Below, one piece after another: positions 1 through 58,426 of a stretch of DNA of 58,426 bases. Within the stretch, counting starts at the first letter, position 1, and each line of letters starts with the position of its first letter. The notes beneath the pieces are model-generated. The model ran no database searches. It saw nothing but the letters and a program-made list of their open reading frames with translations, and was not told the origin of the DNA. The position numbers and the translations under genes are program-made. Origin of the DNA: a virus. The stretch spans positions 1 to 58,426 of IMG/VR virus record IMGVR_UViG_3300011114_000309; one strand, written 5' to 3'.

Positions 1-208
1 TCAAGTAGCTTCTATGTTGCCTAACGAATTAGCTGGAGCTGGTAAAAACGCTGTCACCCAACTTGTAACAACAGGAAAACTCGACCCAACAGTTTTAGCA
101 ACAAGAGTCGGAATGCAAACTGCAACCGATGCGTTAGCCGCTGAAACAGGAATGGATAAAGCTACGGCAAGTCGTCTTGTCAAAGCTGGCGTGACCGCAA
201 TAAGTGGA
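1..208. repeat. Terminal redundancy of a circular genome (left copy)
   Basis: Bases 1-208 match 58219-58426 base for base except position 82 (c) versus 58300 (a). The mismatch is in the third base of a Leu codon (ctc/cta), so it is silent. This is how an assembler writes a circular or circularly permuted genome; the sequence joins in frame across the ends. Confidence 0.95.
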
Positions 209-2326
209 AACGAAATTGGTGCGTTAACACAATTATTTAACGCGGCTGTCACAGGAATAAAACCAGCTACACAAACTGATGCACAAACTACTGCGGCACC
301 AACATTATTAACAGAAACGCAGGCATCAGATCTGCTTAAACTTGGCGGCTTTGATACATCAAAAGATGATCCAGTAGCGCAAGCAATCATAAAAAATCTT
401 TCTGGTACAGAGTACGCGCAAGCATTACCAGTAGGAACACCTACAACAACAATTATTCAAGATGGATTCATTCGTGCGTTGCCGCAGTTAGTACAAGAGG
501 CTGCAAACGATCCAACGATGCAAAGATCGTTGTGGGGAAGGATGATTGATTTTGCAAAAGGTTTGGGAACTGATGCGCTTGCTCGAGTAGGCGCAGCTGC
601 TGCAACACTGTTTTATTCACCTAATTTAAATACAGGTGAACAAGAAGCTTTAGATCGTATTAAACAAGAAGCAGCAAACAACAAAGACTTGGCTAACGAG
701 ATTCAAAGACTTCTTAATCGAGTCCCTGCCCCAACGGCAAATCAAAGTGCAAATGACGTTACGCAACTTGTTATACGTTCAACAAGACTGTTTGACCCAA
801 ACGTCACGCCAGAAACAGAAAAAGAAGTTGTACCCTCTGACGATCCTGATTGGGAAGAATTTAAGCGGCGCATTTTAAAACCTGCGGAACCAGCTACAAC
901 GGCTGCGCCGACCACGCCTACACCTACAACTAAAGCACCAGAAACTAGTGCGGCTCCAACAACAACGGCTGCACCTACTACGCAACCTGCAACAACAAAA
1001 GCTCCTAGCACCACACAAGCACCATCAACAACTCAAAAACCTTTTAACCCGTACGACCCAACGACATGGCCGGATCCGGAAGCCAATCCGGTTTTTAACC
1101 CAGCAGATCCAAAAACTTGGCCCGAAGAAAATACGACTGCTGCGCCAAAGCCATATGATCCAAATAAACCCGTGTTTGATCCAAGAGATCCAACGACATG
1201 GCCCGATCCGGACATAAATCCAGCATTTGATCCAGCCAATCCAAAAACATGGCCGGATACCAATGTTCCACCCAAAACAGTACCAACGACGGGATTACCG
1301 CAGACAACGGTAACGCCTGCCACAACTGCCGTCCCTACTACAAAAGCACCAGTTACTACACAACAGCCAGCAACAACGCAGGCTCCTTCAACGACGTCGC
1401 AACCCGCTACAACGCAGGCACCGGCTACTACAGCGCAGCCAGCCACAACGCAAGCACCTGCTACAACCGGCCAACCTGCAACAACGCAACAACCCGCTAC
1501 AACGCAAGTTCCAGTCACCACAGTAAAACCGTCTGAGCAGCCTACACCATCGACTACTGGAATGCCTTCGACTACCCAGGCACCTGCAACAACACAAGCA
1601 CCAGCAACATCGTTAGCACCAGCTACGTCACAAGCACCTTCTACGTCTTTGGCACCAGCAACATCGTTAGCACCAGCAACATCGTTAGCACCAGCTACGT
1701 CTTTGGCACCGGCTACGACCGTTTCTCCTGTAACGACAGCGTTTCCAGTAACAACTGTAGAACCAGCGACAACAGTAATTACACAAACAACAGTTAAGCC
1801 TGAGATAGGAACAACTGGTGTCCCAACGACAATTCCAGCAACAACTGGTGTTCCAACAACAGTTCCCCCTACAACTGAAGTTCCAACGACGATACCGCCA
1901 ACCACGATAGAACCGACAACTACAGTTAGTCCTACGACAATCGCACCAACTACAGTCGCCCCAACAACAGCGGCACCAAGAGTTACGATTGCGCCTACTA
2001 CAACGCCGTCAACGCCAGGACAAATGGCATGGCCCATGGCACAAGCTATTGCGGCATCATTTGGTATGCCTCAGTTAGCGAATGTCTTTTATTACGGCAA
2101 AGAGTTTGGATCAAAGAAACAGAAGCTAACCAAAGAAGGAACGATTGAAGAAGAAGAATATAAGCCTCTTAGTGTTACTCAAGCTGGTGTAGAACCAGAA
2201 CAAATTGCTGAACAGATTGAAGGCAAAGAGAAAAGAGAGGAAAATTCTGTCGATCAAGTACTTAGGGCAGTTGATGACGACAGCTTATCGTTTGATGACT
2301 TGATACGAATTTTAAGAGGGCAGTGA
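1..2326 (+). CDS. Mucin-like Thr/Pro-repeat virion protein, C-terminal part (N-terminus at 56930)
   Basis: This is the continuation of the gene that starts at 56930; the frame is open from base 2 and matches the frame at the window's end. Joined, the product is about 1204 residues. The visible part has an Ala/Gly-rich helical stretch (up to about base 260), a folded segment (about 300-870), then a long low-complexity stalk (about 890-2010) built from TTxAP and ATSLAP units, with two copies of a WPDP...NPxFDP...PKTWP unit at about 1051-1262. A charged tail follows base 2015. Composition resembles mucin-type stalks. It precedes the ejection-protein genes and follows the nozzle and a fibre-like gene, so a tail or ejected virion protein is likely. 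No enzyme motif seen. Confidence 0.85.
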   Translation, partial: QVASMLPNELAGAGKNAVTQLVTTGKLDPTVLATRVGMQTATDALAAETGMDKATASRLVKAGVTAISGNEIGALTQLFNAAVTGIKPATQTDAQTTAAPTLLTETQASDLLKLGGFDTSKDDPVAQAIIKNLSGTEYAQALPVGTPTTTIIQDGFIRALPQLVQEAANDPTMQRSLWGRMIDFAKGLGTDALARVGAAAATLFYSPNLNTGEQEALDRIKQEAANNKDLANEIQRLLNRVPAPTANQSANDVTQLVIRSTRLFDPNVTPETEKEVVPSDDPDWEEFKRRILKPAEPATTAAPTTPTPTTKAPETSAAPTTTAAPTTQPATTKAPSTTQAPSTTQKPFNPYDPTTWPDPEANPVFNPADPKTWPEENTTAAPKPYDPNKPVFDPRDPTTWPDPDINPAFDPANPKTWPDTNVPPKTVPTTGLPQTTVTPATTAVPTTKAPVTTQQPATTQAPSTTSQPATTQAPATTAQPATTQAPATTGQPATTQQPATTQVPVTTVKPSEQPTPSTTGMPSTTQAPATTQAPATSLAPATSQAPSTSLAPATSLAPATSLAPATSLAPATTVSPVTTAFPVTTVEPATTVITQTTVKPEIGTTGVPTTIPATTGVPTTVPPTTEVPTTIPPTTIEPTTTVSPTTIAPTTVAPTTAAPRVTIAPTTTPSTPGQMAWPMAQAIAASFGMPQLANVFYYGKEFGSKKQKLTKEGTIEEEEYKPLSVTQAGVEPEQIAEQIEGKEKREENSVDQVLRAVDDDSLSFDDLIRILRGQ
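1597..1715 (+). repeat. Tandem 18-bp repeats coding ATSLAP units
   Basis: Units such as gcaccagcaacatcgtta and close variants repeat head to tail, coding Ala-Thr-Ser-Leu-Ala-Pro. Some neighbouring copies are identical at DNA level, which suggests recent slippage or unequal recombination within the Thr/Pro stalk. Confidence 0.8.
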
Positions 2327-24822: not shown

Positions 24823-25625
24823 TGGACTTCATATCGTTTTGCAGGGGACACGGCATCATCATCGACCAGACACCACCAATCGGGGTGTGGAAAAGGTATC
24901 GAACTGAGGATCACCCAAACAAGAAGAACGGCGCAGTGAAATGGATGGGGACGTACGGATTCGTACAGAACCATGCGTTGGATACTGCTGTATCGGTGTG
25001 GCAGTCTGATAAACCGGACGACCTGAAATTTAAGAAGTTCATTCAGGCTGCGACCGATAAGACTCAAGAGACGCAGGAACGTGCGGCAAAGAAGGCCGGA
25101 TGGATTCTGAATCAGTGTGAACTGTTTACCCATGAGTACTTTCTACGGAAAGGTTTTCCGGATGAACGTGGGAATGTGTGGTTCAAGGATAATGAAAAGA
25201 TCCTGGTCATTCCGATGCGGATAGGGACTCGGTTGGTCGGATGCCAGATGATCAGTGAGACCGGAGATAAGAAGTTTTTGTTCGGCCAAAAGACCAGTGG
25301 GGCTGAATTTGTGTTTGATAACAAAGGCCCAAACTTTTGGTGCGAGGGATACGCCACGGCGTTAAGCCTTCGGATGATCTTAAAGTCGATGAAGCGTAGG
25401 TATACGATTCACGTTTGTTTCTCGGCACATAACATGCAGAAACTTGCCAAGGACGGGTATGTGATCGCGGATAACGACGCAAGCGAGACGGGTGAGACGG
25501 TAGCGAAGCGAAGTGGCTTGCCTTATTTCATGCCACCGGACGTTGGCGATGACTTCAACGATTACCACAGGAAAGTCGGGATACTAAAAGCCGGACTCTC
25601 GCTAACAAAATCACTGCGTTTGTAA
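24822..25625 (+). CDS. Toprim-domain DNA primase
   Basis: 267 residues. CEGYATALSLR (E175) and VIADNDASETGE (D217, D219) are the Toprim catalytic motifs of phage/plasmid primases; a DUF927-like or zinc-finger front is absent, the N-terminal ~100 residues being a short accessory region. Starts within the helicase stop. Probably lays primers for phage replication. Converges on the - strand gene at 25611, overlapping 15 bases. Confidence 0.87.
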   Translation: MDFISFCRGHGIIIDQTPPIGVWKRYRTEDHPNKKNGAVKWMGTYGFVQNHALDTAVSVWQSDKPDDLKFKKFIQAATDKTQETQERAAKKAGWILNQCELFTHEYFLRKGFPDERGNVWFKDNEKILVIPMRIGTRLVGCQMISETGDKKFLFGQKTSGAEFVFDNKGPNFWCEGYATALSLRMILKSMKRRYTIHVCFSAHNMQKLAKDGYVIADNDASETGETVAKRSGLPYFMPPDVGDDFNDYHRKVGILKAGLSLTKSLRL

Positions 25626-25817
25626 AGCATAAAAGACCCCTTCAACTTTCATGTGGGAGGGGTTTTCCCGTTCGGTATGCTTCAGGAACATGAGCATTTC
25701 CATGCCAAGGGAATAGCTAGCTTCGCCTGGGCCATAGTGATCGGCACTGACTCGTACAAAGCCGGTTTCATCTTCCATCAAATAGATGGCGAACATCGTC
25801 TTATTTTTCATGGTCAT
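25611..25817 (-). CDS. Hypothetical protein
   Basis: 68 residues from ATG 25817 (MTMKNKTMFAIYLMEDETGF); a second in-frame ATG at 25811 has better spacing from AGGAC. Beta-rich with VRVSADHYGPGEASYSLGME. Follows the DpdA-like gene by four bases, so part of that operon. Function unknown. Confidence 0.6.
   Translation of the reverse strand: MTMKNKTMFAIYLMEDETGFVRVSADHYGPGEASYSLGMEMLMFLKHTERENPSHMKVEGVFYALQTQ
25636..25666 (+). terminator. Possible terminator of helicase-primase operon
   Basis: ACCCCT (25636-25641) pairs with AGGGGT (25658-25663) followed by TTT; it lies inside the opposite-strand gene and the loop is long, so weak. Confidence 0.3.
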
Positions 25818-25821
25818 CGTC

Positions 25822-26550
25822 CTAGATGAACAAAGGCTTTTGATATTGCATGGTATTGATGCGATCTTCAAACACTTTCGCTTCCCGCCAATCATTTCCG
25901 TTGCGGCGTTCGTACCGAGCGGCAAAAGACCATGCCATAGAGTCTGCTGTGTAGAGTAATTCACGCACCAATCCGGATGATAGGGCAGTAGTCTTTACAC
26001 CAAACCCGTGAAGACGTAGATCGGGACGTTCGGTTTTGATAGCAAGCAGTACTTGCTCGATAGATGCGATGTTGTTATTGCGTTTGCATACGGACCCCAC
26101 ACCGACCCACATGCCTTGCTTTAGGCGGTCTCCGTACATACGGATGTGATTAACGTAGTCTTGTGGGTCGTACCCTTGCAGGACCGGAATGATGTAAACA
26201 CCTCCAACGTCATGTTGAAGCAGCTCGTCGTAGCGTTCGATGGTCATGCGTTGATGTTCGGGTATGGTTTTCCCGGTCATCTTCAGGACAAATGCTTCGC
26301 ACATAAAATCCTGGGACACTGCGGCTAGTAGGTTGCCGCAGGTGGAGAATCGTTTGATGTGATGGGCATATTCAGACACGGGGAAACGGTATCCCCCATG
26401 TCTGACCACCTCGGTAAATGCACCTGAATCCATGATCCAGTCGTTGACTGGGAAATGGCTTTTGCGATTCCGTATGGTGTTTACGGAAATAAAAGCAGAC
26501 TCAAAGTGTTTCGAGTCTGCGGGGTGATGCAGTCCAGTGAAAAACCTCAT
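25822..26550 (-). CDS. dpdA: DpdA-like 7-deazaguanine DNA transglycosylase
   Basis: 242 residues. WIMDSGAFTEV (D41 in a DSGxF motif), IIPVLQGYDPQDYVNHI, MWVGVGSVCKR, RLHGFGVK and ADSMAWSF follow the TGT/DpdA order seen in phage proteins that swap guanine in DNA for a 7-deazaguanine. D41 corresponds to the base-recognition Asp of queuine tRNA-ribosyltransferases. No preQ0 synthesis genes (folE, queD, queE, queC) are seen in the window, so the precursor would come from the host. Substrate cannot be told from sequence. ATGA-coupled to the upstream microprotein. Confidence 0.8.
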   Translation of the reverse strand: MRFFTGLHHPADSKHFESAFISVNTIRNRKSHFPVNDWIMDSGAFTEVVRHGGYRFPVSEYAHHIKRFSTCGNLLAAVSQDFMCEAFVLKMTGKTIPEHQRMTIERYDELLQHDVGGVYIIPVLQGYDPQDYVNHIRMYGDRLKQGMWVGVGSVCKRNNNIASIEQVLLAIKTERPDLRLHGFGVKTTALSSGLVRELLYTADSMAWSFAARYERRNGNDWREAKVFEDRINTMQYQKPLFI

Positions 26551-26645
26551 TCAGAAAACCACCATTTCACCATCATCCAACCAAGTGCAACACCGGATAC
26601 AACCATCACCACAAGGTCTAAGACCAAATCAGTTAAACGTTTCAT
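26547..26645 (-). CDS. 32-residue membrane microprotein
   Basis: MKRLTDLVLDLVVMVVSGVA... ending VKWWFSE: a single transmembrane helix with a basic start. ATGA overlaps at both ends (26642-26645 and 26547-26550) tie it to its neighbours. Confidence 0.55.
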   Translation of the reverse strand: MKRLTDLVLDLVVMVVSGVALGWMMVKWWFSE

Positions 26646-26863
26646 GCCCAAGCCTCCAAAAATTCAGCGTCTGACTTTTGACCCTCGAGAATCTGAGTGT
26701 TCAGCCAATGGTCATAGATATCGACCAAGGGTTCGAGGTTTTGACCGTGACGGTCTACGAACTCCCAAACTTGGATGAACGCATAGAGAAAATCGCGTTG
26801 ATCTTGAGTGAGTCGGGATCCGTATTCAAAAAGCATCTCGTCGGCGGTTCTATTGGGCATCAT
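26642..26863 (-). CDS. Hypothetical protein
   Basis: 73 residues, acidic and aromatic (DQRDFLYAFIQVWEFVDRHG). Helical, no family recognised. Coupled by a 4-base overlap to the microprotein downstream. The N-terminal NRTADEM resembles the start NRTADKV of the next gene upstream, suggesting a shared short module. Confidence 0.6.
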   Translation of the reverse strand: MMPNRTADEMLFEYGSRLTQDQRDFLYAFIQVWEFVDRHGQNLEPLVDIYDHWLNTQILEGQKSDAEFLEAWA

Positions 26864-27014
26864 GTTGATTTTCCTTTTGGTCTATTAAATCGCCCACGGC
26901 TAACCAGTAGCGGTAACCGAGGCTTTCGGATGGAAACTTGCTTGCCATGTACATACAAAAGACATAAGCATGCTCTCCGTACATGGCAACTACTTTGTCG
27001 GCGGTCCGGTTCAT
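26850..27014 (-). CDS. 54-residue hypothetical protein
   Basis: MNRTADKVVAMYGEHAYVFC, MYMASKFPSES, ending KENQHDAQ. Start overlaps the upstream stop as ATGA; end overlaps the next start by 14 bases. Shares NRTAD with the following product. Function unknown. Confidence 0.55.
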   Translation of the reverse strand: MNRTADKVVAMYGEHAYVFCMYMASKFPSESLGYRYWLAVGDLIDQKENQHDAQ

Positions 27015-27140: not shown

Positions 27141-27809
27141 CTAATGCTCGATAAAGGCTATCGCCTTAGTCGTGGACCAACAAAGGCCGCATGTCAGGCA
27201 TGAGGAGGTTTTCCCGGTTTGTTCCGGGCATGTAATGCCTTCGCCCATGACGTTAGCCGACATGGATCCACCCTTGTCGGACCATCGGATCCACGCGCGA
27301 TCATTTTGCAGATTGTCGGCTATGGCATCGGCGATCGGACCGTCGGTTCTATGGGTGTAACCGAAGACATGCAACGAAGGGTATGCCCGAAGGGCATTAG
27401 CCCAAAAATCTACATAATCCGTACTGTAAAAGTCTCCTAAGACATGAAGACGAACTACAAACCCTTGCGGATGTTTCCGGGCTAAATAGTCCAGTTCGTC
27501 ATTAAGTCTCATTTCCAATAATTCGGGTTCGGACGAACTAATCCGGTGAGCGAACCCCATATTGTTCCCGAAGCATCGGTCCCATTGCTGACATGATCGG
27601 GAACAGGTAGCCCGTTCTTCAAGAGTAAGGGTGTACATGGGCATACCGGACCATTTACCCTTTGTGACTACGTTCGAACCCGCACCAAGCTTGGCATTTC
27701 CCGAAGCCGGTTTAAGTAGACGCGAAGCATAGTCGGCTAAGGGTTTAACCGTCTTCGGGTGAATTGTCACGGCATGCTCGAGTGCCGGGTGATTTGCGCG
27801 TAGTCTCAT
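27141..27809 (-). CDS. GP88-like cysteine-rich phage protein
   Basis: 222 residues from the ATG at 27809, which has GGAGATAAC upstream (an earlier in-frame ATG at 27833 is less well placed). YTLTLEERATCSRSCQQW then RCFGNNMGFAHR, FVVRLHVLGDFYS and HVFGYTHR match the phage 'gene product 88' family as I remember it. C-terminal CPEQ...SCLTCGLCW adds more cysteines, suggesting an Fe-S or zinc site. Function unproved. It sits in the same operon as the DpdA-like gene, so a link to DNA modification is possible. Confidence 0.75.
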   Translation of the reverse strand: MRLRANHPALEHAVTIHPKTVKPLADYASRLLKPASGNAKLGAGSNVVTKGKWSGMPMYTLTLEERATCSRSCQQWDRCFGNNMGFAHRISSSEPELLEMRLNDELDYLARKHPQGFVVRLHVLGDFYSTDYVDFWANALRAYPSLHVFGYTHRTDGPIADAIADNLQNDRAWIRWSDKGGSMSANVMGEGITCPEQTGKTSSCLTCGLCWSTTKAIAFIEH

Positions 27810-27834
27810 TGTTATCTCCGTTAGTAGGTCCACA

Positions 27835-34737: not shown

Positions 34738-34915
34738 TTTACTTCAAAAGAAAATACAAGACCGCATTCAAAATTTGAATGAGTCTGTGAGCAACGGCTC
34801 GGCAAAAGATTATGCCGAGTACCGAGAACTGTGCGGCGTTATCCGAGGTCTACGATCTGCACAGATGGAAATACAAGACCTTGAGAGTCGTATAAAGGAA
34901 GATGAAGATGAGTGA
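34721..34915 (+). CDS. Small coiled-coil protein
   Basis: 64 residues; overlaps the glycosyltransferase end by 17 bases. LLQKKIQDRIQNLNES and LRSAQMEIQDLESRIKEDEDE form an amphipathic coil with acidic tail. Conserved in this position in similar phages; role unknown, perhaps in head assembly. Confidence 0.65.
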   Translation: MNSVFDLLQKKIQDRIQNLNESVSNGSAKDYAEYRELCGVIRGLRSAQMEIQDLESRIKEDEDE

Positions 34916-35309
34916 GTTACTAATCTCCCAAGATGGAGAGTCGGCAACAACGTTGCCTGAGACGGCAGAAGAAAAGGCAAAGCAGTTGCCTGAACCTTCT
35001 ACCTATCATGTGTTGTGTGTACTTCCCGAAGTGGATGAGGAGTACGACAGTGGACTAGTTAAGGCTGGATCGACTGTGTACTACGAAGAAGTATTATCAC
35101 CAGTTTTGTTTGTCGTAAAACTAGGACCAGATGCGTATAAAGATAAAACGCGTTTTCCTAGCGGACCTTCATGCAAAGTAGGTGACTTTGTTCTTGTTCG
35201 TCCTAACACTGGAACGCGAATCAAGATTCACGGTAAAGAGTTTCGGATCATTAATGATGATTCGGTTGAAGCCGTTGTTCAAGATCCTCGCGGCATTTCG
35301 AGAGCATAG
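34902..35309 (+). CDS. GroES-like co-chaperonin
   Basis: 135 residues. VLFVVKLGPDAYKDKTRF, KVGDFVLVRPNTGTRI and GKEFRIINDDSVEAVVQDP show the GroES/Cpn10 beta-barrel with an N-terminal extension; the mobile-loop region lies near residues 50-65. Phages use such proteins (T4 gp31 is the model) with host GroEL to fold the capsid protein. Neighbouring scaffold and capsid genes fit this. Confidence 0.8.
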   Translation: MKMSELLISQDGESATTLPETAEEKAKQLPEPSTYHVLCVLPEVDEEYDSGLVKAGSTVYYEEVLSPVLFVVKLGPDAYKDKTRFPSGPSCKVGDFVLVRPNTGTRIKIHGKEFRIINDDSVEAVVQDPRGISRA

Positions 35310-38528: not shown

Positions 38529-38536
38529 ATTGTCTA

Positions 38537-38565
38537 TTGACATCAGAGGTTCCAAGCGGTACATT
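38537..38565 (+). promoter_or_regulatory. Promoter of homing endonuclease gene
   Basis: TTGACA (38537-38542) and TACATT (38560-38565), spacer 17. Gives the endonuclease gene its own transcript. Confidence 0.6.
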
Positions 38566-38598
38566 ACGAAGACAGTTTTATATCGCAAGGAGAAGTGT

Positions 38599-39519
38599 AT
38601 GTCGCAGGTCATCTACAAAATTATCAATCTTGTAAACAACAAGTTTTATATAGGAAGCACGACAAATAAAAAGGTAAGGTTTCGCCAGCACCGAAAGTTG
38701 TTGAGAGGCAATCGACATCATTGCAAACACCTTCAGGCGTCTTGGAACAAATACGGCGAAAACAAATTTGAGTTTGTTGTAGTTGAAGAAGTGCCACAAG
38801 AGATAGAACTTTGGAAAGTAGAGGACAAATGGTTGCAGCAACATGTTGGAAAAGAACATTGTTATAACAGCGGCTATGCTGCGGTGGCCCCTTGGCGTGG
38901 CGTAGTTGGCAAAAAGCATCCAAAATTTGGGGTTACCGTTACTCCATTACAGAAAGAACAAATCTCTAAGACTCTTAAAGATTTTTACGCAGCCGACTAC
39001 TTTAATCACCCTCGAGTTGGTAAGAAACATTCGGAAGAAACTCGTCAAAAGATAAGGCAAAACAGAACGCCAACAAGCGGCGAGAACCATTACCGCTACG
39101 GCAAGACCCTTTCCGAAGAAGTAAAGAAAAAGATTGGTGATGCACAAAGAGGCAAACCAAAAGCACCAGGTAGGAAAGTGTCAGAAGAAGGCTTGAAAAA
39201 AATCAGGCGAAATATTGAGGAAGGCCGCAGCCATAAATCTTTTTTAGGTAAGAAACATACAGACGAAACTAAATTGAAAATGAGAAAGCCAGTTTTTGCT
39301 ATGCCGGAAGGCATCCTCTTTCCTAGCCTTACAGAAGTGCTTTCATGTTACGACATACCTATGCCAACGCTTCGTCGCGCCTTAGCTTCGGGCAACCCAA
39401 TAAGCAAAGGCAAACTAAAGGGTTACACTTTTACTTACGCAGGAAAGGATGCAAGGCCAACAGAAAACGACCTTGCGTTAATCAAAGCCAAACGCATTGA
39501 CACCACCTCTATAAACTGA
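38599..39519 (+). CDS. GIY-YIG homing endonuclease with NUMOD repeats
   Basis: 306 residues from ATG 38599 (AAGGAGAAG upstream). VIYKIINLVNNKFYIGSTTN is the GIY-YIG core, with RQHRKLLRG and KYGENKFEFVVVEEV. Three NUMOD3-like motifs follow (GKKHSEETRQKIRQ, GKTLSEEVKKKIGDAQRG, GKKHTDETKLKM), then an IENR1/NUMOD1-like C-terminus. It interrupts the structural operon and has its own promoter, so it is best read as a selfish mobile gene. Confidence 0.9.
   Translation: MSQVIYKIINLVNNKFYIGSTTNKKVRFRQHRKLLRGNRHHCKHLQASWNKYGENKFEFVVVEEVPQEIELWKVEDKWLQQHVGKEHCYNSGYAAVAPWRGVVGKKHPKFGVTVTPLQKEQISKTLKDFYAADYFNHPRVGKKHSEETRQKIRQNRTPTSGENHYRYGKTLSEEVKKKIGDAQRGKPKAPGRKVSEEGLKKIRRNIEEGRSHKSFLGKKHTDETKLKMRKPVFAMPEGILFPSLTEVLSCYDIPMPTLRRALASGNPISKGKLKGYTFTYAGKDARPTENDLALIKAKRIDTTSIN
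38599..39519 (+). mobile_element. Free-standing homing endonuclease insertion
   Basis: The GIY-YIG gene between a terminator/promoter pair and the next leader hairpin behaves as a mobile genetic unit; neighbouring genes on both sides are virion genes. Exact insertion boundaries cannot be set without a phage lacking it. Confidence 0.5.
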
Positions 39520-56929: not shown

Positions 56930-58426
56930 ATGGCGCTTAACTTACCCGGAGATTGGAGTACATATAGTGGTGAAGAAAAAGTTAATTTCTTCAACACGAT
57001 GGGTGTTACGCCGTCGCAACTTATAAGTGCAGGAGTACCTCAATCAGACATTAACTGGATGTATGAGTTTGGTGGGTATAACGTTTATGACCCAGAAACC
57101 GAAGCAGTTACAGGTGTAAAGCCTCGGCAAGGTATTGAAACATTATTAACAACTTCTGCACCGGTCATCACAACCGTTGCGCCAGTCATTACAACCGCAG
57201 CACCAGTTTATGTAGAACCCGTCTATACGTACAACCCTTGGCAAGAAAGCGAACAAGGTGGTTATGTAGAACCAACAACTATTGCCCCTGTTGTCACAAC
57301 TTTAGCACCTATTGTTACAACCCCTGCACCAACAACTGCAACACCTACCACATTAGCACCGACTACAACGTTTACACCGACAGCCACGGTTACAACTCAA
57401 GCCCCATCAATAACTACAACCGCTGCACCTGTTGCTACAACACTTCCACCGGTTACAACTAATGCACCGGTGACAACATCTTCGCCTGTTGTCTATGAAG
57501 AAACTACAACATCAAGCACACAGCCGGAAACTACAACTGTAATTCCATCCTATGGAACTGGTCCTTCAGTTACGGGTGTAACGCTTGATCAAAATCTTGT
57601 CAAACCTGTAGAAACAACTTATCGCGGCGTTCAAATACCAACGTTTACAGACCGTACCGTGTATACAGGTGGTGGTGAAAATGCGGGTATTTTTCAATCT
57701 GCCGCAGAACAATTGACAGCTTGGAAAAGTGAGCAAGATCGTCGAGCATCATTAACGCCAGCACAACGTGCAATCGAAGATGCTAGGTATGTTGTTCAAG
57801 GAGAAGGATCTAATACTGAAGCATTTAATCCTGTAACTCTTAATGGTCAAGAATGGACTGTAACGCCAGGTGGTGATTCACTTGTCAAGCTTTCACAAGA
57901 TCAATCCGGTCTTGGGGAAAAACAATACCGATATGAACTTTTGAATCCTGCTACAGGACAGGTAACGCAACAAATTGGGGTTGAAGGTCCAGGTCTGTTA
58001 AGAAGTTTTTTAACAAATCCTGTAACCGGAATGATTTTAGGATTAGCGCTTCCTGGTGTTGGTCAAGCTATTGGTTCTGCATTAGGCGCAACTGGAGCAG
58101 CGGCAGGTGCTTTAGGTTCAGGTGTATTGAATTTTGGTTTACAAGTTGCAACTGGTAAAGATCCTGTTGATGCTTTAAAAGGTGCGGTACTAAGTGCTGG
58201 CGCTGGCTTTGTAGGATCTCAAGTAGCTTCTATGTTGCCTAACGAATTAGCTGGAGCTGGTAAAAACGCTGTCACCCAACTTGTAACAACAGGAAAACTA
58301 GACCCAACAGTTTTAGCAACAAGAGTCGGAATGCAAACTGCAACCGATGCGTTAGCCGCTGAAACAGGAATGGATAAAGCTACGGCAAGTCGTCTTGTCA
58401 AAGCTGGCGTGACCGCAATAAGTGGA
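56930..58426 (+). CDS. Mucin-like Thr/Pro-repeat virion protein, N-terminal part (continues at 1-2326)
   Basis: This frame has no stop before the window end and continues at base 2 of the window; whole product about 1204 residues. MALNLPGDWSTYSGEEKVNF starts a short folded domain, then a Thr/Pro/Ala stalk (about 57080-57560, TTTAAPV units), a globular segment (57590-58000), and a Gly/Ala-rich hydrophobic region (58010-58230) like a membrane-inserting glycine zipper. A second Thr/Pro stalk follows in the first 2 kb. Cut by the window only because the circle was opened there. Confidence 0.85.
   Translation, partial: MALNLPGDWSTYSGEEKVNFFNTMGVTPSQLISAGVPQSDINWMYEFGGYNVYDPETEAVTGVKPRQGIETLLTTSAPVITTVAPVITTAAPVYVEPVYTYNPWQESEQGGYVEPTTIAPVVTTLAPIVTTPAPTTATPTTLAPTTTFTPTATVTTQAPSITTTAAPVATTLPPVTTNAPVTTSSPVVYEETTTSSTQPETTTVIPSYGTGPSVTGVTLDQNLVKPVETTYRGVQIPTFTDRTVYTGGGENAGIFQSAAEQLTAWKSEQDRRASLTPAQRAIEDARYVVQGEGSNTEAFNPVTLNGQEWTVTPGGDSLVKLSQDQSGLGEKQYRYELLNPATGQVTQQIGVEGPGLLRSFLTNPVTGMILGLALPGVGQAIGSALGATGAAAGALGSGVLNFGLQVATGKDPVDALKGAVLSAGAGFVGSQVASMLPNELAGAGKNAVTQLVTTGKLDPTVLATRVGMQTATDALAAETGMDKATASRLVKAGVTAISG
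58219..58426. repeat. Terminal redundancy of a circular genome (right copy)
   Basis: Repeats 1-208 with one silent change (a at 58300). Marks the closing point of the circle. Confidence 0.95.

What the first reader, a model, noticed from the sequence alone, without database searches (positions are those of the whole stretch)
25822..26550. DpdA-like enzyme: possible 7-deazaguanine-modified genome
DSGxF and later motifs match phage transglycosylases that insert preQ0-type bases in DNA, a known shield from restriction. No synthesis genes are visible, so the phage would draw on the host pool.
Basis: partly seen in the sequence, partly recalled or inferred. Interest (0 to 1): 0.65.

Follow-up and report, generated by a model that had tools for sequence, protein, structure and literature searches.

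The report
Phage DNA-guanine exchange enzyme, salvaged base
This phage carries a real gene for an enzyme of the kind that swaps guanine in DNA for a 7-deazaguanine base, but it makes no base of its own, and relatives suggest that the base comes from the host or through a transporter gene that this phage lacks; it is a good new member of a known class rather than a new system.

Summary
Window 25822-26550 (-) encodes a 242-aa PF23859 (DpdA) protein, E=1.6e-35. Its model (pLDDT 94) has solved DpdA 7ui4 as top Foldseek hit; D41 and D203 are invariant in 56 aligned rows. The first 208 bases recur at the end (99.5%), so the genome looks complete and its missing genes truly missing: no QueC, no QueD, no YhhQ-type transporter. 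A modified genome is not shown: the two DpdA-only phages measured in print had 0 and ~0.02% of G modified. dpdA is under strong purifying selection in seven siblings (dN/dS 0.00-0.04), so it is used. Added here: sibling L006 has one extra gene, a YhhQ/Vut_1 (preQ0-transporter-like) gene, right after dpdA. The pairing recurs: in 16 of 120 relatives of this DpdA, and 15 of 18 transporter loci examined from phage records have a DpdA-type gene within three genes (13 of 18 strictly); QueC is absent from all 17 of these records that were tested. Reading: orphan phage DpdAs run on salvaged base, imported or host-made; this phage depends on its host. Known kind, modest interest.

The parts
25822..26550 (-). 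dpdA: DNA-guanine transglycosylase-like protein, 242 aa
   Evidence: PF23859 E=1.6e-35; phrog_1279 E=1.2e-61; AlphaFold2 model pLDDT 94.2, 7ui4 DpdA top Foldseek hit E=6.7e-7
26428..26430 (-). codon of D41 in DSGAF, presumed active-site Asp (equivalence with the DSGGF Asp of TGT is recalled)
   Evidence: invariant in 56 of 56 rows; aligned with the DSGAF of CAjan DpdA
25942..25944 (-). codon of D203 in ADSMAWS, presumed nucleophile Asp (role recalled from TGT)
   Evidence: invariant in 56 of 56 rows; aligned with CDSSSW of CAjan DpdA
25814..25820 (.). junction directly after dpdA at which sibling L006 carries an extra YhhQ/Vut_1 transporter gene (about 460 bp)
   Evidence: alignment of window and L006, blastn pieces, transporter profile hit; PF02592 rings in the L006 record, not in the window
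25611..25811 (-). 66-aa gene of unknown function, directly after dpdA in the window and after the transporter in L006
   Evidence: spacing in six siblings
26642..26863 (-). small gene (73 aa, phrog_9962) upstream on the same strand
26850..27014 (-). small gene (54 aa) upstream on the same strand
   Evidence: kept in L006
27141..27833 (-). GP88-family gene (PF17338), same strand; not a dedicated partner of dpdA
   Evidence: PF17338 28.6 bits, cut-off 24.4; of 40 GP88 loci only siblings of this phage also show dpdA within the DNA held
1..208 (+). terminal overlap, repeats 58219-58426: the contig spans a whole circular or circularly permuted genome
   Evidence: 99.5% identity over 208 bp;
58219..58426 (+). 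second copy of the terminal overlap

Best explanation
dpdA encodes a phage DNA-guanine transglycosylase. After replication it opens the glycosidic bond of guanine at some sites in the phage DNA through an Asp nucleophile and puts a 7-deazaguanine base (preQ0 or a relative) in its place. The phage makes no such base. It takes it from the host's queuosine pathway or from what the host imports; some relatives add their own YhhQ-like importer next to dpdA, and this phage does not. How much of its DNA is modified depends on the host and may be low. Shown: family, fold, conserved Asp pair, selection, absence of QueC/QueD and of the transporter, recurrent transporter pairing in relatives. Inferred: DNA as substrate, identity of the base, protection from restriction.
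For: PF23859 and phrog_1279 matches; fold of TGT/DpdA, 7ui4 rank 1 by Foldseek and Z 17.8 by VIA-align; CAjan DpdA, whose deletion abolishes DNA modification (PMC6884629), aligns over 150 columns with the main motifs in register, E=7.7e-5; dN/dS 0.00-0.04 in all 21 pairs of seven siblings; no QueC/PTPS and a closed contig; a YhhQ-like gene next to dpdA in sibling L006 and in 16 of 120 relatives in all, at least 7 forced changes on the tree; Salmonella 7-11, DpdA only, carries dADG.
Against: No biochemical evidence for this subfamily here; VIA-align ranks an archaeosine tRNA-TGT slightly above 7ui4 (18.9 against 17.8). Mycobacteriophage Orion, DpdA only, has no modification. The host is unknown, so a base supply is not shown. 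Sibling L126 lacks dpdA, so it is dispensable in the lineage. 104 of 120 relatives show no transporter next to dpdA in the DNA held.
Confidence: 0.66

Rival explanations
1. A tRNA-guanine transglycosylase-like enzyme that acts on host tRNA (or another RNA) during infection, not on DNA.
For: Same fold as tRNA TGTs; the best VIA-align Z is an archaeal tRNA TGT, 18.9; named 'queuine tRNA-ribosyltransferase' in PHROGs.
Against: 242 aa and three Cys (71, 84, 155), so no Cys-rich C-terminal zinc site as in tRNA TGT (recalled); the profile gives no usable match to E. coli Tgt but aligns with CAjan DpdA; no tRNA genes in the genome; Pfam files it with DNA-acting DpdA.
Confidence: 0.12
2. An active enzyme with no useful substrate in the present host: the gene is carried but the DNA is unmodified, as in mycobacteriophage Orion.
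For: The phage lacks both synthesis and import genes; Orion is unmodified; the gene is absent in sibling L126.
Against: Strong purifying selection, also among siblings without the transporter, dN/dS 0.00-0.04, argues for use in most hosts met.
Confidence: 0.15
3. A transglycosylase that inserts a different base, or removes guanine, as an attack on host DNA or on a rival's DNA.
For: I know of no assay of this subfamily; dpdA is a cassette in a variable slot.
Against: Motifs match those of the base-inserting CAjan enzyme; the recurrent partner is a transporter of the preQ0-precursor kind.
Confidence: 0.05

Closest known systems
Sinorhizobium phage phiLM21 gp25 (YP_009221496.1) and Rhizobium phage RHph_TM3_3_3
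   Same: 56% and 55% identical over 96-98% of the protein; no QueC or PTPS in either record
   Different: phiLM21 has the YhhQ-like gene directly after dpdA; the window does not
DpdA-only phages of Hutinet 2019, third group (Salmonella 7-11, mycobacteriophage Orion)
   Same: dpdA without any preQ0 synthesis gene (PMC6884629)
   Different: Salmonella 7-11 DpdA is of another kind, close to the phrog_887 proteins; Orion's record is not held and was not compared
Escherichia phage CAjan DpdA (DNA preQ0 insertion shown genetically)
   Same: DSGAF, LHxFG and xDSxxW motifs align
   Different: 306 aa; CAjan carries FolE, QueD, QueE, QueC and its own transporter
Solved DpdA 7ui4 and tRNA TGTs
   Same: fold: Z 17.8, rmsd 3.5 A over 228 residues for 7ui4
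   Different: 16% identity; the solved chain is 413 residues, the window protein 242

Membership tests
DpdA (PF23859, DNA-guanine transglycosylase) | sequence match above the curated cut-off | tested here: met
   122.9 bits against 27
DpdA (PF23859, DNA-guanine transglycosylase) | TGT/DpdA fold | tested here: met
   7ui4 Foldseek rank 1, E=6.7e-7; Z 17.8
DpdA (PF23859, DNA-guanine transglycosylase) | two active-site Asp and the LHxFG histidine | tested here: met
   D41, D203, H181 invariant in 56 rows; in register with CAjan DpdA. Roles are recalled from TGT
DpdA (PF23859, DNA-guanine transglycosylase) | inserts a 7-deazaguanine in DNA | not testable with these tools
   needs LC-MS or digestion
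tRNA-guanine transglycosylase (Tgt) | C-terminal CxCxxC...H zinc site (recalled) | tested here: not met
   only Cys 71, 84, 155; protein ends at 242
tRNA-guanine transglycosylase (Tgt) | sequence kinship to Tgt | tested here: inconclusive
   hhalign with E. coli Tgt: 29 columns, E=0.11; the profile search of PDB sequences lists no TGT
Self-sufficient 7-deazaguanine phage (CAjan type) | encodes FolE, QueD, QueE, QueC | tested here: not met
   PF06508 and PF01242 absent; CAjan FolE and QueE probes negative
DpdA plus YhhQ-like importer pair | PF02592/Vut_1-type gene next to dpdA | tested here: not met
   absent from the window; present in sibling L006

The most novel reading that the evidence does not exclude
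Phage DpdAs without synthesis genes form a salvage class of DNA modification: distinct DpdA lineages (PF23859, phrog_887, probably phrog_15826) have repeatedly teamed up with a YhhQ-like importer in place of the four preQ0 synthesis genes, and the pair can be gained or lost as single genes between near-identical phages. This phage is the reduced form that lives off the host's own base, so its restriction shield would depend on the host's queuosine economy.
Probability: 0.55. Interest if true: 0.55.

Novelty: new member of a known kind. Interest (0 to 1): 0.36.

Why it matters
DpdA-only phages were the largest group in the 2019 survey, with a modification status called difficult to predict, and YhhQ was said to show no correlation with any group. 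The one-gene difference after dpdA between the window and L006 makes the question testable: the same dpdA with and without its importer. If true, such phages' resistance to restriction would vary with host and medium.

Tried and rejected
GP88-family neighbour (27141-27833) as a dpdA partner: rejected. 40 viral loci encode relatives; those that also hold dpdA are L005, L007, L124, L127, L128 and L130, all siblings of this phage; L126, a sibling without dpdA, keeps GP88; in named phages it is mostly in mycobacteriophages (156 of 162 records). Its model is weak (pLDDT 71.5) and no PDB chain stands out (best Foldseek E=0.086; best Z 6.2).

RNA switches: Rfam finds nothing in the window and no preQ1 riboswitch in ten relatives (L039 and L119 of the twelve first asked were left out for size).

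A DpdA-transporter fusion in L081 was suspected, but the transporter stretch lies in two frames upstream, so none is claimed. NCBIfam gave nothing for dpdA above its cut-offs; MetJ hits in Pfam, NCBIfam and the PDB are sub-threshold. A DNA-level search of named phages with 20000-44000 found no near relative.

Against the pairing: in mEp021 and MagusPhagus the transporter sits next to a phrog_757 methyltransferase, not DpdA; MT837598 has the transporter but looks like bacterial DNA without dpdA. Of 120 PF23859-type rows, 104 show no transporter next to dpdA in the DNA held. The NAR 2023 paper on DpdA subfamilies (recalled) is not held and could already report this pairing.

Full report
What is there. 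Window 25822-26550, minus strand, is an intact 242-aa ORF. Pfam places it in PF23859 (DpdA) at 122.9 bits, E=1.6e-35, and PHROGs in phrog_1279 at E=1.2e-61. Among 50,697 phage records tblastn finds relatives in 399, all under 60% identity, 390 of them named Mycobacterium phages; the best is Sinorhizobium phage phiLM21, 56.3% over 96%. IMG/VR gives 37 loci and bacterial genomes 80 kept of 113, mostly proteobacteria and actinobacteria.

Enzyme. I aligned the window with 17 of the 37 viral and 38 of the 80 genome relatives (A2). D41 of DSGAF, Q125, V149 and G152, H181 of LHGFG, D203 and W207 are invariant in these 56 rows; L021, left out of A2, reads DIGAF. The AlphaFold2 model has mean pLDDT 94.2. 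Foldseek's first hit is 7ui4, the DNA preQ0 insertase DpdA, E=6.7e-7; VIA-align gives it Z 17.8 over 228 residues, close to an archaeal tRNA TGT at 18.9. Fold alone therefore does not tell DNA from tRNA. Sequence leans to DNA: hhalign pairs the family with CAjan DpdA over 150 columns with the DSGAF, LHxFG and xDSxxW blocks in register (E=7.7e-5), and finds only a 29-column match to E. coli Tgt (E=0.11). The protein has three Cys and no C-terminal zinc site. The role of the Asp pair is recalled from TGT enzymology.

No synthesis, no import, and nothing hidden past the ends. The first 208 bases return at the end at 99.5% identity (seen also), so the 58.4-kb contig closes on itself. QueC (PF06508) and PTPS/QueD (PF01242) are absent from the window, with CAjan ringing as control; CAjan FolE and QueE probes are negative. 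The YhhQ family PF02592 is absent, and a hydropathy screen finds no ORF with three or more hydrophobic segments apart from a repetitive ORF at 1036-2070 (-), which lies antisense to the 770-aa ORF at 14-2326 (the L006 transporter scores 5).

Is it used? In seven siblings (window, L005-L010) all 21 pairwise dN/dS values are 0.00-0.04. In five of the six sibling loci the 66-aa gene's motif lies 23-31 bases after dpdA, which leaves no room for a transporter, and the window is the same; in L006 it lies at +491. So dpdA is kept by selection in phages without the importer. Yet sibling L126 lacks dpdA in the same slot while the 803 bases after it stay 92.7% identical: the gene is a cassette.

The transporter. 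L006, whose DpdA differs at 4 of 242 residues, carries one extra gene of about 460 bp exactly between the dpdA stop and the 66-aa gene. Its protein belongs to the YhhQ/Vut_1 family: PF02592 rings in that record at E=1.6e-11, and it was found with a profile seeded by the CAjan transporter. In the same family of DpdA, 16 of 120 distinct relatives have such a gene next to dpdA (L030, counted as without, has a transporter next to a second DpdA of the phrog_887 kind). On a quick tree the label needs 10 changes, at least 7 forced by well-supported branches, so the pairing arose or was lost several times; long branches make the exact number unsure. From the other side, tblastn with two transporters finds 21 and 19 phage records. 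I examined 11 and 7 loci. Of these 18, 15 have a DpdA-type gene within three genes: phiLM21 (PF23859 type), twelve phrog_887 (PEAT2, AB3P2, Opt-719, Tbat1_6, LHE71, RCIP0319, Phc, Lg3, ECO111 5-P, RHph_N3_2, RHph_X2_30, Pam5) and two phrog_15826 (Aoka, annotated as DpdA-like, and GreaseLightnin). The last two rest on an annotation and a weak cross-match, so the strict count is 13 of 18. Exceptions: mEp021, MagusPhagus, MT837598. QueC is absent from all 17 of these records that were tested (MT837598 was not); PTPS was asked of 12 of the 17 and is absent. For scale, this DpdA family is seen in 399 of 50,697 records.

How it most likely works. Step 1 (inferred): the base, preQ0 or a relative, is made by the host or imported. 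Step 2 (inferred from family and fold): DpdA exchanges guanine for it in DNA after replication. Step 3 (inferred): modified sites resist some restriction enzymes, as shown for CAjan by dpdA deletion (PMC6884629, passages). The level may be low: of the two DpdA-only phages measured, Orion had none and Salmonella 7-11 about 0.02% of G as dADG (section read). So the title 'modified genome' is a hypothesis that depends on an unknown host. The terminase is nearest to those of a seawater phage, a lake phage with a gammaproteobacterial host label, and Pelagibacter phages (53-58% identity; records), which does not fix the host.

Against what is known. DpdA without synthesis genes is the largest group in Hutinet 2019 (76 phages; section read). 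[quoted passage not shown] Archaeal viruses HCTV-1 and HCTV-16 with YhhQ, and HRTV-29 with DpdA alone, are reported in PMC8651126 (passages), and EC151 with a full pathway plus transporter in PMC8310023 (passages). The tight DpdA-YhhQ pairing in phages without synthesis genes was not found by the searches, but the 2023 NAR paper is not held, so I do not claim priority. Verdict: a new member of a known kind, with a useful natural pair (window and L006) to test the salvage idea.

Noticed in passing
window 27141-27833 (-): GP88-family protein (PF17338) with seven Cys (77, 81, 87 and 202, 212, 215, 218), all invariant in 21 rows. A weak model has a strand, then the first Cys cluster, then alternating helices and strands; radical SAM proteins (LIAS, Cfr, viperin) appear among middling fold matches (Z 4.4-5.0). 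It could be a radical-SAM-like or other metal-cluster enzyme; not shown.
   Followed up: partly
L030 7965-8669 (+) and 622-1317 (-): One viral contig carries two DpdA kinds, a PF23859 type and a phrog_887-like type next to a YhhQ-like transporter.
   Followed up: partly
L003 6001-6765: The dpdA of Microcystis phage Mwe-JY07 seems to change frame near residue 199 of the family, so it may be broken or mis-sequenced.
   Followed up: no
L165 3959-4471 and L171 3968-4471: In mEp021-like coliphages the YhhQ-like gene sits next to a phrog_757 methyltransferase, with another methyltransferase gene two genes upstream, and no DpdA near; its role there is unexplained.
   Followed up: partly
L103, L106-L109, L117, L119, L120: Several actinobacterial genome contigs have a transporter and DpdA pair of the same kind; whether these are prophages was not checked.
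   Followed up: no
window 38530-39519 (+): Homing-endonuclease-like gene (phrog_314, E=3e-39) inside the structural gene block.
   Followed up: no
window 34902-35309 (+): Phage-encoded GroES-like co-chaperonin (phrog_3188, E=8e-9); genes so annotated also occur in the related phages DSL-LC04 and 023Pt_psg01.
   Followed up: no
L006 7276-7896 (+): A 206-aa gene lies between the 73-aa gene and dpdA in L006 and is missing in the window: the slot around dpdA varies on both sides.
   Followed up: no
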